In this document: positions 36,716 through 47,393 of the stretch, piece after piece
How the letters are laid out: each line of letters begins with the position of its first letter
Numbering within the stretch: the stretch's first letter is position 1
DNA from: Methanomassiliicoccus sp.
Lineage (GTDB): Archaea; Thermoplasmatota; Thermoplasmata; Methanomassiliicoccales; Methanomassiliicoccaceae
Reading direction: 5' to 3'
DNA: 64,000 nt
NCBI GenBank assembly: GCA_018262895.1
Contig: JADFDJ010000002.1
Coordinates: 124,001 to 188,000 of the forward strand
Notes under the pieces: model-generated
The model's input: the letters and a program-made list of their open reading frames with translations, nothing else
The model's database searches: none
What the model was told of the DNA's origin: nothing
Program-made: the position numbers and the translations under genes

Positions 36716-36800
36716 TCTCGTGCCGATATGAACATGCGCAGACGACATCCGGGGATATCAGGTCCACCAAAACCTAAAATGAAATATTGATAAATACGCA

Positions 36801-36820
36801 GAGAGCCCTTGCAGACTCTC
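36801..36820 (-). other. 3' hairpin of microprotein cassette 1 (8-bp stem, GCAA tetraloop)
   Basis: Minus-strand GAGAGUCU-GCAA-GGGCUCUC, 34 nt after the stop codon; same structure in cassette 2. Confidence 0.65.
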
Positions 36821-36854
36821 GGTCGGGTTTGATACGAAGACCATCGATGCACGC

Positions 36855-36941
36855 TTACCGGCGCCTGCCGCTGCTGAACTTCATGTAGGTCCAGGTGGCT
36901 GCAAGGAATATAATTGAACCGGTGAAATATACCCATTCCAT
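36855..36941 (-). CDS. 28-aa single-TM microprotein, copy 1
   Basis: MEWVYFTGSIIFLAATWTYMKFSSGRRR, preceded by GGGAGGTGAcaacgg; paralog at 37379..37465. Confidence 0.8.
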   Translation of the reverse strand: MEWVYFTGSIIFLAATWTYMKFSSGRRR

Positions 36942-37325
36942 CCGTTGTCACCTCCCTTTTCTATATTCCCCCCCCCAAGGGCTAGTATTCCAATTGGTAA
37001 AAGGGTGTATTTATCATTATCTTATTACATAATAATAAAATAATTATACAATTGATTTATCAAATGTAAAAAATTTTTAGAATTTTTTTATACATGTTAG
37101 AGATGGCCGTGCTACATTTTATCATTGTAATTATTTATCGGAAAATTATTAACAGATGGCGAAAAATGAAAAAATGCTTCTGTTCTTATATAGGTCGAAC
37201 ATCGATTGATATAGCATCGAATAGAGTTCTAGTAACGGCTCCACAATACTGCATAAATGCTTTTGACGGACTTTTCATGATGTGATGAGATCAAGAACAA
37301 TCATAACGATGGAAATCGTTTTATT

Positions 37326-37345
37326 GAGAGCCCTTGCGAGCTCCC
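37326..37345 (-). other. 3' hairpin of microprotein cassette 2 (8-bp stem, GCAA tetraloop)
   Basis: Minus-strand GGGAGCUC-GCAA-GGGCUCUC, 33 nt after the stop codon. Confidence 0.65.
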
Positions 37346-37378
37346 TGTTGAGTTTGACAAGGCTGAATCGGCAACTGT

Positions 37379-37465
37379 TTACCGCCTTCCTGCCTTCATC
37401 CTTACATAGGTCCAGGTGGCTGCAAGGAAAATCACAGAGCCCGTGAAGTAGACCATCTCAAACAT
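37379..37465 (-). CDS. 28-aa single-TM microprotein, copy 2
   Basis: MFEMVYFTGSVIFLAATWTYVRMKAGRR, preceded by AAAGGAGGTGAaagcgg; mostly synonymous differences to copy 1 in VYFTGS. Confidence 0.8.
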   Translation of the reverse strand: MFEMVYFTGSVIFLAATWTYVRMKAGRR

Positions 37466-37720
37466 CCGCTTTCACCTCCTTTTATAATGTCCGGACCCCC
37501 CCCCTAGGGGCCTCACCTACTCTTTGGAGCAAGTAGTATATATTCTTATCTTTTTAGATTATTATCTAAATATATTCTAGCCAGATACAAATAATCCTGG
37601 ATGATAATGCTAAGTTATTATTTGTGGTTTTTAAACCAAGATAGCTAATCTTCATCCTTAAAATAATGTAAAAAGGTAAGGGGAAAGGGTTTCAAGCGGT
37701 CGGCCTTCTCGTGCCTCTGA

Positions 37721-39712
37721 TCAGGCGGGGATCTGGCCTTCAGCCACTACGAAGCACGCATACGCTCCGTAGAACAGCATCTGGTCGTTGGTGATGGCGA
37801 AGCCATCGTCACCGATACAGACAGAGACCTGGTTGCAGGCAGCGAGCAGACCCCTCATCTCAACTTCCACTTCCTGGCCGTTGAGGCAGATGGTCATGCA
37901 CTCGTCGTCGTGGGTCACGGTCTGGAATCCGATCTTGCCGCACTTCTCGTCACCGAGGATCTTGGTCGTGCCCTCGTTGTAGATGGTTGTCTTCAGCTCC
38001 TTGCTGACGCTGTCGCACTGGTTGGTGTAGGTCACGGTGGTGACGGCAGTGATGTCAGTCATGGTGCTTATAGTGGTCTCCTCACCGAACACGACCTGGA
38101 CGATCTGGTGGTAGTTGAGCTCGGTCGCGAACTCCATCTGGGGGCCGTTGCAGTCATCGCTCAGGGGAGCAATGGTGCTGGCTCCGTAGACCACCGAGGT
38201 CTCCATGGTCAGCATGGTGGGCAGGAAGGGCACTTTCAGGGGCAGATAGAAGTAGACTCCATCCACCTCAGCGTCGTCATCGTAGTTGCAGATGCTGGCG
38301 TAGGCGACGTTCTGCAGCGGGGTCTCATCGAAGTCGATGAAGGCCACGTTCTCCAGGGTGAAGGTCACCTCATATGCGTAGGTGTAACTCTCACCAGGGC
38401 ACAGAATGGGCTTGGCGCAGGTGTCAACGTTGATGGTAGCGACATCGATCCAGCACTCACCGTTCCACATCTGTATGGTATCGGTGAGAACAAGTCCCTG
38501 AGTGGCGTAGGCACCGGTGTTGATGACGGTGATGCCACCAACGACGGTGAAGGTACCAACATCGCTGAGCACGATCTGGTCGATGATCACGGGATCAGCG
38601 GAGTTGGCGAACTCAACGTCCTCCTGGCTGAGCTGGCTTGCCAGAGCAGCGTCGGGGAAGTCAAGGCCCAGCTGGATGTACTCGGTCCAGGACACATCGG
38701 CGGTCTTGCAGATGCCCAGGGTGGTCTCCAGGTAGCCACCGTAGATAACGATGGGCTCGCTGTCAGAGATCTCCCCGCAGGAGTCCTCAAGGTTCAGGAT
38801 GGCCGTGTTGCAGATGGTGTAGATCTTGTCGCGGCAGGCGTCGACATTGGTCACCTTCAGGTTGACAGAGACCTCGAAGTGGGAGCACTTGTCACCGTTC
38901 ACGAACCAGGGTCCGATTCCGGTGAGGGCCTCGACACAGAAGCCGCTGGGGATGGCACCGATCTTGTCCACGATGCACGCGTTGTCATCGATTATGGTGA
39001 CCTTGGGCTCGCAGGGCAGGTTGAACCCGTCCATGGCCTCGACGCCGTACATCTCACCGGCGTGACCCTCGAAGTTGCAGATGGTCACGTCAGCGACATT
39101 GCGGTAGCAGGCGCCCTTTACAGCATCGAACTCGAAGCAGTAGCTGTAGCAGTAGGACTCACCGGCCGCCAGGATGGGGTGGCTGGAGGTGTCCACGGCA
39201 AAGCTAACGTAGTCCTCGTATCCAACGCAGTCATCCACCAGTATCTGGATGGTGTCCACGATGGTCAGGCTCTGGGTGTCCGCGCAGCCGGTGTTGGTGA
39301 CCGTTATGGTCCCCTTCACACCAATCTTCTCGGTCACAACAGGGCAGGACCTGTCGGCAGTGATCAGGTAGGAGATCACGGCGGACTCACCGGGCTCGAT
39401 CATGAGGTCGTACCCGTTGCAGTCATCGGCAAGTACCACGTAGTCGTTCTCGTACACGGTCTTGTCAATGGTCCAGGTATACAGAATGGTCTTCTCCCAG
39501 AAACCATCGGCGGTCTTCTTCGCAGAAATGGTGGTGGTTGCCGGGGCATCGTTCTGTTCCTCATTCTCAGCCGGGGTCTGGTCTACCAACTCTGGATTCT
39601 GGTCTACTGAGACCGGGGTCGACGGGTTCTGATCGCCGGATCCCTGGTCAGCGGCACCGGTCGTCGTGGTTCCCTGTATGGCTACCAAGGCGACGGCGCT
39701 TATCATTACCAC
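37721..39712 (-). CDS. Secreted/surface protein, acidic, Cys-rich, DUF11-like repeats
   Basis: Hydrophobic N-terminus; repeated VTNTGCADTQSLTIVDTIQ / VINTGAYATQGLVLTDTIQ and AGESYCYSY / PGESYTYAY modules. Confidence 0.75.
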   Translation of the reverse strand: MVMISAVALVAIQGTTTTGAADQGSGDQNPSTPVSVDQNPELVDQTPAENEEQNDAPATTTISAKKTADGFWEKTILYTWTIDKTVYENDYVVLADDCNGYDLMIEPGESAVISYLITADRSCPVVTEKIGVKGTITVTNTGCADTQSLTIVDTIQILVDDCVGYEDYVSFAVDTSSHPILAAGESYCYSYCFEFDAVKGACYRNVADVTICNFEGHAGEMYGVEAMDGFNLPCEPKVTIIDDNACIVDKIGAIPSGFCVEALTGIGPWFVNGDKCSHFEVSVNLKVTNVDACRDKIYTICNTAILNLEDSCGEISDSEPIVIYGGYLETTLGICKTADVSWTEYIQLGLDFPDAALASQLSQEDVEFANSADPVIIDQIVLSDVGTFTVVGGITVINTGAYATQGLVLTDTIQMWNGECWIDVATINVDTCAKPILCPGESYTYAYEVTFTLENVAFIDFDETPLQNVAYASICNYDDDAEVDGVYFYLPLKVPFLPTMLTMETSVVYGASTIAPLSDDCNGPQMEFATELNYHQIVQVVFGEETTISTMTDITAVTTVTYTNQCDSVSKELKTTIYNEGTTKILGDEKCGKIGFQTVTHDDECMTICLNGQEVEVEMRGLLAACNQVSVCIGDDGFAITNDQMLFYGAYACFVVAEGQIPA

Positions 39713-39915
39713 TAGCGCGAGCGCTAGTGCTAGTATCTTCGTTGCATTCTTCGTGTTGTAAACCCCCCAAAAGGTTTGGTACCTCTTTGGTAACTTTCTA
39801 TTTATATACTTTTCTATTAAATAGTAATAATTTTATCAAAAAGGATAACTGCATTTCTTGTATAATATTAATAAAATAGAACTATGACCTCTAATAAAAA
39901 TATTTTCACAAAGAC

Positions 39916-46070: not shown

Positions 46071-46326
46071 CGGTCACACAGTCGTCCAGGCACCCGATGA
46101 GGTCATCGCAGCATGAGCGTCCGTCCGCGACCCCGCCGCCCTGTAGCCCCACCGCTGCCTCCAGTCGTTCGACCCTCGCCTCCAGTTGTTCTACGCGCTC
46201 CTCAAGCCCCCTTGGAAACCTCCTGCGGTAGTTCCTTCCACTTTTGTCCCTGCGGTCCATGAGCACGCCCCTCGACCCATCATTGGATTCTGGAGAGGAT
46301 AAAGGAACGCAAAGCCCGCACGTCAT
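46027..46326 (-). CDS. Coiled-coil hypothetical protein upstream of and overlapping the PIN gene
   Basis: RGLEERVEQLEARVERLEAAVGLQ heptads; CCDDLIGCLDDCV; the start may be internal. Confidence 0.5.
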   Translation of the reverse strand: MTCGLCVPLSSPESNDGSRGVLMDRRDKSGRNYRRRFPRGLEERVEQLEARVERLEAAVGLQGGGVADGRSCCDDLIGCLDDCVTDVRELRQRVRDVRS

Positions 46327-46430
46327 TACCGGAATTGATAACGAGGAAAACCCAAATCTTATACCTGGACGGCATCGGCCATAAGCACGGTATGAGTTCG
46401 CCTATTTAAACAACAGGAGAACGGACTGCC

Positions 46431-47393
46431 GTGCGTGCCCGAGGGTCCGTCATGAAGAAAAGCGCTTCTGCGTTCTCCCTGACCTTGCTGCTGCTGTCAG
46501 CCGCTCTTCTCGCATCATCGATGAGCGTGGCCACGGTCAACGCATCCACAACCAGCCAGATCTCCATCGCTGGCGATGCCGAACTGGCATCGCAGGCGGC
46601 CGAGAGGGGATGGCCGGGGGACGGAACTTGGTCGAACCCCTACACGATCTCTGACGTCATTATCAGTAACCCGGCGAACGGTCAGGGTATCATCATTTCC
46701 GGTACGAGCAAGCACCTGATCATCGAGAACTGCACCATAAGCGGTACGTCCAGCTATGCCGTCGATGTCACCGGAGCGTCCAACGTGACCGTCAGGGACT
46801 CGGCGATGGGCGCTTGCTTCAGCGCCGTCTTCATGTACACTTCCAGTAACTGCACCATCACCAACAACACCATATCCTCCTGCCAGACGGGGATCCTGCT
46901 GATCTCTTCGTTCGACATCATGATATCCGGCAACACCATCACCGATTCGCTGTACGAAGGCATAGAGCTGTGCACGTCCACCAGCAACAGCATCGCCGGG
47001 AACGTGGTGTCAAGCTGCGGGGACTATGGCCTCTACCTTTCCAGCAGCGACGGGAACACCATCTATGGGAACACCTTCATCGACAACAACGGCGCGGGTG
47101 CAAGCTACAACACGGATCATCCCCAGACCTATGACCGGGGCGTCAACGCCTGGAGCTATGAAGGGCAGGGGAACGTGTGGAGCGACTGGTCCTCCGAGGG
47201 CCCTTATCCCCACGAGGGGAGCGCGGCCGCCAACGATGTCCTTAACACCTTGGACATCGGGGACACTGTCCCTGTCATCCTCGCCATTGCCGTGGTGGTC
47301 GGGGCCATCGTGGCGGCTTTCGTGCTCATCCGGCGGAGGAGGGAGGAGGTTCAAGAGCTCCCTGACCAACAGGCACCCCCTCCTCAGGAGTAG
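46431..47393 (+). CDS. Secreted NosD-like parallel beta-helix protein with C-terminal TM anchor
   Basis: Signal peptide, right-handed beta-helix repeats (NCTISGTSSYAVDVTGASNVTV, NCTITNNTISSCQTGILL), C-terminal VPVILAIAVVVGAIVAAFVLIRRRREE. Confidence 0.8.
   Translation: MRARGSVMKKSASAFSLTLLLLSAALLASSMSVATVNASTTSQISIAGDAELASQAAERGWPGDGTWSNPYTISDVIISNPANGQGIIISGTSKHLIIENCTISGTSSYAVDVTGASNVTVRDSAMGACFSAVFMYTSSNCTITNNTISSCQTGILLISSFDIMISGNTITDSLYEGIELCTSTSNSIAGNVVSSCGDYGLYLSSSDGNTIYGNTFIDNNGAGASYNTDHPQTYDRGVNAWSYEGQGNVWSDWSSEGPYPHEGSAAANDVLNTLDIGDTVPVILAIAVVVGAIVAAFVLIRRRREEVQELPDQQAPPPQE

What the first reader, a model, noticed from the sequence alone, without database searches (positions are those of the whole stretch)
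36801..37550. Tandem cassettes encoding an unannotated 28-aa single-TM microprotein family
Two minus-strand micro-ORFs, 524 nt apart, are missing from the ORF track: MEWVYFTGSIIFLAATWTYMKFSSGRRR (36855-36941) and MFEMVYFTGSVIFLAATWTYVRMKAGRR (37379-37465). Both have a perfect GGAGGTGA Shine-Dalgarno and a hydrophobic core ending in a basic tail, as in a single-pass membrane peptide. In VYFTGS, five of six codons differ only synonymously (gta tat ttc acc ggt tca vs gtc tac ttc acg ggc tct). That indicates selection on the protein rather than a recent DNA copy. Each copy has its own TATA-like box (about 37006-37014 and 37537-37545). They sit in an AT-rich island between metF and a surface protein. 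I recognise no family; possible roles are a small subunit or regulator of a membrane complex, or a toxin-like peptide.
Basis: partly seen in the sequence, partly recalled or inferred. Interest (0 to 1): 0.82.

Follow-up and report, generated by a model that had tools for sequence, protein, structure and literature searches.

The report
Tandem microproteins paired with surface protein
Two overlooked genes make 28-amino-acid membrane peptides; across a family of archaea related to methanogens such peptides sit beside, and share a control site with, a large cell-surface protein, so they are probably its small membrane partners.

Summary
In detail: two real minus-strand micro-ORFs (36855-36941, 37379-37465), each with TATA box, 5' stem-loop and GGAGGTGA Shine-Dalgarno. 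Related genomes show 20 copies in 12 genomes of the same family. Selection on the protein is purifying (pooled pN/pS 0.38, 0.33, 0.15 in three genera). Protein sequence diverges so far between genera that tblastn missed it; the promoter/leader is better conserved and recovered all copies (50 bits or more; next hit 24.6). All but one copy lie directly downstream of one surface-protein gene (window 37721-39757), and both are absent together from two near-complete family genomes. The surface-gene promoter carries the same dyad TTATC-N6-GATAA at a fixed place in 9 of 12 genomes. In one genome a 655-residue secreted beta-solenoid protein ends in a microprotein homologue (63% over 27 residues) as its C-terminal helix. 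Best explanation: co-regulated, stand-alone membrane helices that partner or anchor surface proteins. Gene reality and family are shown; co-regulation is strongly suggested; the anchor role is inferred.

The parts
36855..36941 (-). microprotein gene a, MEWVYFTGSIIFLAATWTYMKFSSGRRR (28 aa)
   Evidence: orthologue in G003 encodes the identical protein with 2 synonymous changes
36948..36955 (-). Shine-Dalgarno GGAGGTGA of gene a
36968..36982 (-). 5' leader stem-loop GCCCTTGGGGGGGGG of gene a
   Evidence: a stem of the CCC(C/U)..(A/G)GGG kind starts 22-26 nt after the TATA end in 19 of 20 copies
37008..37014 (-). TATA box ATAAATA of gene a
37017..37032 (-). dyad TTATGTAATAAGATAA upstream of TATA of gene a
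36801..36830 (-). 3' GCAA-tetraloop hairpin preceded by AAACCCGAC, gene a (terminator-like)
37379..37465 (-). microprotein gene b, MFEMVYFTGSVIFLAATWTYVRMKAGRR (28 aa)
37472..37479 (-). Shine-Dalgarno GGAGGTGA of gene b
37493..37512 (-). 5' leader stem-loop GGCCCCTAGGGGGGGGGTCC of gene b
37537..37543 (-). TATA box ATATATA of gene b
37546..37561 (-). dyad TAATCTAAAAAGATAA upstream of TATA of gene b
37326..37356 (-). 3' GCAA-tetraloop hairpin preceded by AAACTCAAC, gene b
37721..39757 (-). partner: secreted all-beta surface protein of about 660-680 aa, N-terminal hydrophobic segment, no C-terminal TM
39833..39848 (-). perfect dyad TTATCCTTTTTGATAA in the surface-gene promoter

Best explanation
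The two ORFs belong to a family of 26-34-residue single-helix membrane proteins of the Methanomassiliicoccaceae. Each is made from its own short mRNA (TATA, 5'-terminal stem-loop, perfect SD), from promoters carrying the dyad TTATC-N6-GATAA that is also present in the promoter of the adjacent surface-protein gene. Proposed mechanism: a common regulator switches on the surface protein and its microproteins together; the helices insert in the membrane and act as detached anchor or assembly helices for surface proteins, the job done in cis by the homologous C-terminal helix of a secreted beta-solenoid protein in genome G009. Shown: gene reality, protein-level selection, family, synteny, joint presence/absence, shared dyad, one fusion. 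Inferred: expression, membrane insertion, regulator, physical binding and anchoring.
For: Homologues in 5 of 7 genomes of the genus. The surface protein is in the same 5. In two other genera its orthologue is again followed on the same strand by 1-2 micro-ORFs with AAAGGAGGTGA-type SD. Promoter/leader model R2 over 148 genomes of the order: 20 hits of 50 bits or more, all micro-ORFs in surface-protein genomes, next 24.6 bits. G001 and G007 (both 99% complete) have the metF locus but neither component. pN/pS 0.15-0.38. Dyad at 1 mismatch or fewer in 10 of 12 surface promoters, 9 of them at the same offset; mononucleotide shuffles mean 0.2, maximum 3 of 12; in the 64-kb window only one other such site lies outside these promoter regions. 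C-terminus of a 655-aa secreted protein in G009: PYSFYYSSGVVFFASWTTVA against microprotein PYSFFYSTGVVFFAAWTTIA, 63% over 27 aa, E 1.9e-9 among fetched loci.
Against: No expression or interaction data. Charge pattern is not conserved: C-terminal basic in genus g1, Lys8 near the N-terminus in g3, none in g4, so one fixed topology or binding site is not evident. One copy in G003 and a remote paralogue in G000/G003 lie away from the surface gene. The surface protein may already be held by its own N-terminal hydrophobic segment. The fusion is seen in one genome only. Orthologous promoters are not independent samples; three g1 surface promoters lack a good dyad at that position.
Confidence: 0.5

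Rival explanations
1. Stand-alone small membrane proteins that tune general membrane or envelope state (stress-type, like many bacterial single-TM proteins), merely co-regulated with the surface gene.
For: Own promoters and terminators; copies at other loci without a surface gene nearby; charges vary between genera; shared dyad fits an envelope regulon.
Against: Strict co-occurrence and adjacency with one surface protein; fusion to a secreted protein.
Confidence: 0.3
2. Type I toxin-like hydrophobic peptides controlled by antisense RNA.
For: Length, single helix, tandem copies.
Against: Accessible perfect SD not sequestered by the leader stem; no Rfam family; no viral or plasmid homologue; inherited with one surface gene.
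Confidence: 0.06
3. Leaderless secreted peptides (bacteriocin-like pair).
For: Tandem, recurrently duplicated, hydrophobic peptides.
Against: No immunity or transporter gene in the block; no charge at all in g4; C-terminal fusion argues for a membrane helix.
Confidence: 0.05
4. The transcripts act as RNAs (conserved leader stem and 3' hairpin) and the ORF is secondary.
For: Leader is better conserved between genera than the peptide; the stem shows compensatory changes (CCCC/GGGG to CCCU/AGGG).
Against: Strong synonymous bias in the ORF; the 3' hairpin is replaced by other terminator-like sequences in the G003 solitary copy and in g3; the stem is a short 5' clamp.
Confidence: 0.05

Closest known systems
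SlaA/SlaB two-component S-layer of Sulfolobus
   Same: Extracellular surface protein with a separately encoded membrane-bound partner (PMC10903991).
   Different: SlaB is a 475-aa protein of beta-sandwich domains plus a coiled coil that forms trimers; here the partner is 26-34 aa, one helix, in tandem copies, with no sequence relation found.
C-terminal sorting/anchor tails (PGF-CTERM, GlyGly-CTERM, MYXO-CTERM)
   Same: Short hydrophobic C-terminal helix of surface proteins, as in the G009 fusion; g1 members also have a basic end (PMC6219818, PMC11980579 for the tripartite tails).
   Different: Here mostly encoded as separate genes; no tripartite signature motif identified and no sortase partner sought.
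Bacterial single-TM small proteins (YohP, DinQ)
   Same: About 27-residue single-helix membrane peptides (PMC7549839, PMC3567139).
   Different: No sequence relation shown; DinQ is toxic and antisense-controlled, these are coupled to a surface gene.

Membership tests
C-terminal sorting tails (CTERM class) | located at the C-terminus of larger secreted proteins | tested here: inconclusive
   true for one protein in G009; 20 copies plus 2 remote paralogues are stand-alone genes
C-terminal sorting tails (CTERM class) | match to a curated Pfam model | tested here: not met
   no significant Pfam family for the microproteins
C-terminal sorting tails (CTERM class) | cognate sortase or intramembrane protease | not tested
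   not searched
SlaB-type S-layer anchor | beta-sandwich domains plus coiled coil | tested here: not met
   26-34 residues, one hydrophobic segment
type I toxins | antisense RNA overlapping the gene | tested here: inconclusive
   no Rfam hit above threshold; antisense transcription needs RNA data
type I toxins | toxicity on overexpression | not testable with these tools
   bench test
small single-TM membrane proteins | one hydrophobic segment of about 17-19 residues filling most of a protein under 50 aa | tested here: met
   best Kyte-Doolittle mean 1.25-2.09 in all 22 members

The most novel reading that the evidence does not exclude
A new cell-envelope principle: a surface protein is held or assembled by tiny, separately encoded trans anchor helices, expressed together with it by a dedicated regulator, and occasionally fused to other surface proteins as a C-terminal anchor.
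Probability: 0.3. Interest if true: 0.8.

Novelty: new variant of a known kind. Interest (0 to 1): 0.62.

Why it matters
Small proteins are missed by annotation, and this family is invisible to tblastn between genera; it was recovered through its promoter and synteny, a route that could uncover others. The envelope of Methanomassiliicoccus is unresolved (an outer electron-dense layer, possibly an outer membrane, has been suggested; PMC4243693), and a surface protein with dedicated membrane helices would give a direct handle on how its outer layer is attached.

Tried and rejected
Chance ORFs: rejected by homology, synonymous bias and SD/promoter conservation. Genus-restricted orphan: rejected after locating divergent members beside the surface gene in g3 and g4. 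Virus or plasmid origin: no homologue in IMG/VR scans or PLSDB. Known families: Pfam and PHROGs give nothing significant. Structured RNA: Rfam gives only sub-threshold hits (best Transposase-2, 20.5 bits against 42.7). Surface-protein fold: AF2 pLDDT 82.5, all beta, but PDB matches are generic beta-sandwich proteins at query TM below 0.2. Paralogous surface proteins in g3: C-termini carry no microprotein-like helix. One ancient tandem duplication: not supported by the tree; pairs arose or were converted more than once, with positional orthology clear only in G000/G003 and in part of g3.

Full report
Observation. The two ORFs are present exactly as described. GGAGGTGA followed by ATG at 3-8 nt occurs only at these two places in the window, against 0.32 expected. 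The two cassettes align through dyad, TATA, G-run, SD, ORF and a 3' GCAA-loop hairpin.

Distribution of the protein. tblastn finds relatives only in the same genus: G002, G003 (three), G005, G006. Contig lengths identify G005 with Methanomassiliicoccus sp. UBA6 and G002 with MAG UR.bin18. In order-wide searches the remaining hits are weak and lie inside longer frames or are partial. Selection: own_a and its G003 orthologue are identical proteins with two synonymous changes; pooled pN/pS is 0.38 (g1), 0.33 (g3), 0.15 (g4). The sites are few (about 17 synonymous per pair) and some dS values are saturated, so these are indications, consistent across pairs that are not independent.

Link to the surface protein. 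A 660-680-aa secreted protein (window 37721-39757) occurs in exactly the five genus members with micro-ORFs. Its orthologues in genera g3 and g4 of the same family are also followed on the same strand by one or two micro-ORFs with AAAGGAGGTGA-type SD, but of very different sequence: MFSFTYLKAFAVIAFTYIAINWGF-type in g3, MFALPYSFFYSTGVVFFAAWTTIAASGWLPFF-type in g4. A model of the 100-nt promoter/leader (R2) finds 20 copies in 12 genomes at 50 bits or more, and nothing else above 24.6 bits in 148 genomes of the order. Most of these copies built the model, but those of G013 (two) and G014 (one) did not and were found independently. G001 and G007 (99% complete) retain the metF region but lack both surface gene and micro-ORFs, and in G001 the nuclease gene that normally lies beyond the surface gene directly follows metF, so the block is gained or lost as a unit. 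G004 also lacks both but is only 67% complete.

Regulatory anatomy. The copies share a dyad TTATC-N6-GATAA (some half-sites imperfect), 2 nt, TATA (ATAAATA), 22-26 nt, a short stem (CCCC/GGGG, UCCCC/GGGGA, CCCU/AGGG), then SD (one g3 copy, G008_1, has only a weak stem). The stem has compensatory changes and a loop of 3-7 nt; the variable loop argues for RNA rather than a dimer-binding DNA site. Its position puts it at the 5' end of the mRNA, which suggests a protective clamp (inference). The surface-gene promoters carry the same dyad at one mismatch or fewer in 10 of 12 genomes, 9 at the same offset. Model R1, built on micro-ORF promoters only, had already hit the surface promoter in G000 and G003 (E 0.001-0.002). 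In the 64-kb window, sites with at most one mismatch are three in the micro-ORF region, one perfect in the surface promoter and one upstream of another beta-helix surface protein at 46431.

More members. A weak R2 hit led to a second-locus paralogue, MIELAFGNEIVIGFAALWTAILIRVRVGAGIRFPL in G000 and its orthologue in G003 (BLASTP E 4e-6 to the G002 member in a single comparison). A profile search then hit the C-terminus of a 655-aa secreted beta-solenoid protein in G009: signal peptide, solenoid, proline-rich linker, then HMPYSFYYSSGVVFFASWTTVAMNVGMP. This is 63% identical over 27 residues to the stand-alone g4 microprotein of the same genome. It ties the peptide to secreted surface proteins and implies an N-outside topology for that helix, as expected also for the basic C-terminus of g1 members. 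g3 members have Lys8 near the N-terminus, which does not fit as simply.

Surface protein. No Pfam match; five of ten orthologues touch the DUF11-type repeat below cut-off. AF2 model: confident all-beta domains, disordered N-terminal linker, no C-terminal helix; PDB matches are generic. That it is a surface protein rests on its N-terminal hydrophobic segment and repeat type, not on experiment.

Mechanism. Shown: real genes, selection on protein, family, synteny, joint presence, shared dyad. Strongly suggested: co-regulation. Inferred: the helices are membrane partners or anchors of surface proteins. The main rival is a general envelope small protein in the same regulon. Toxin, bacteriocin and RNA-only readings are disfavoured.

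Limits.

Noticed in passing
window 39700-39790 (-): The surface-protein gene in G000 and G003 has no ATG/GTG/TTG before its hydrophobic N-terminal segment (GGGGGGTTTACAACACGAAGAATGCAACGAAGATA...), unlike other genomes where ATG or TTG follows the G-run; a non-canonical start is possible.
   Followed up: partly
window 28039-63952: FolD, formate-THF ligase, MetV/MetF, a pterin-binding methyltransferase, CODH/ACS-like subunits and a ferredoxin-type activator: looks like a THF-based Wood-Ljungdahl methyl branch in a Methanomassiliicoccaceae genome (mostly recognised by eye).
   Followed up: no
window 46326-46341: Dyad with one mismatch (TTACCGGAATTGATAA) about 100 bp upstream of a beta-helix surface protein with C-terminal TM and RRRR tail (46431-47393); possible regulon member.
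   Followed up: no
L129 954-1061 (G000:C25 from 85453): Second-locus microprotein MIELAFGNEIVIGFAALWTAILIRVRVGAGIRFPL with dyad-like promoter, orthologue in G003.
   Followed up: partly
L098 (G010), promoters of the two copies: The two G010 leaders are identical from TATA to ATG while the ORFs differ, suggesting gene conversion of the promoter.
   Followed up: no
window 36797-36864 (-): Sub-threshold Rfam match to Transposase-2 RNA (20.5 bits, gathering 42.7) over the 3' hairpin of gene a; not repeated in relatives.
   Followed up: partly
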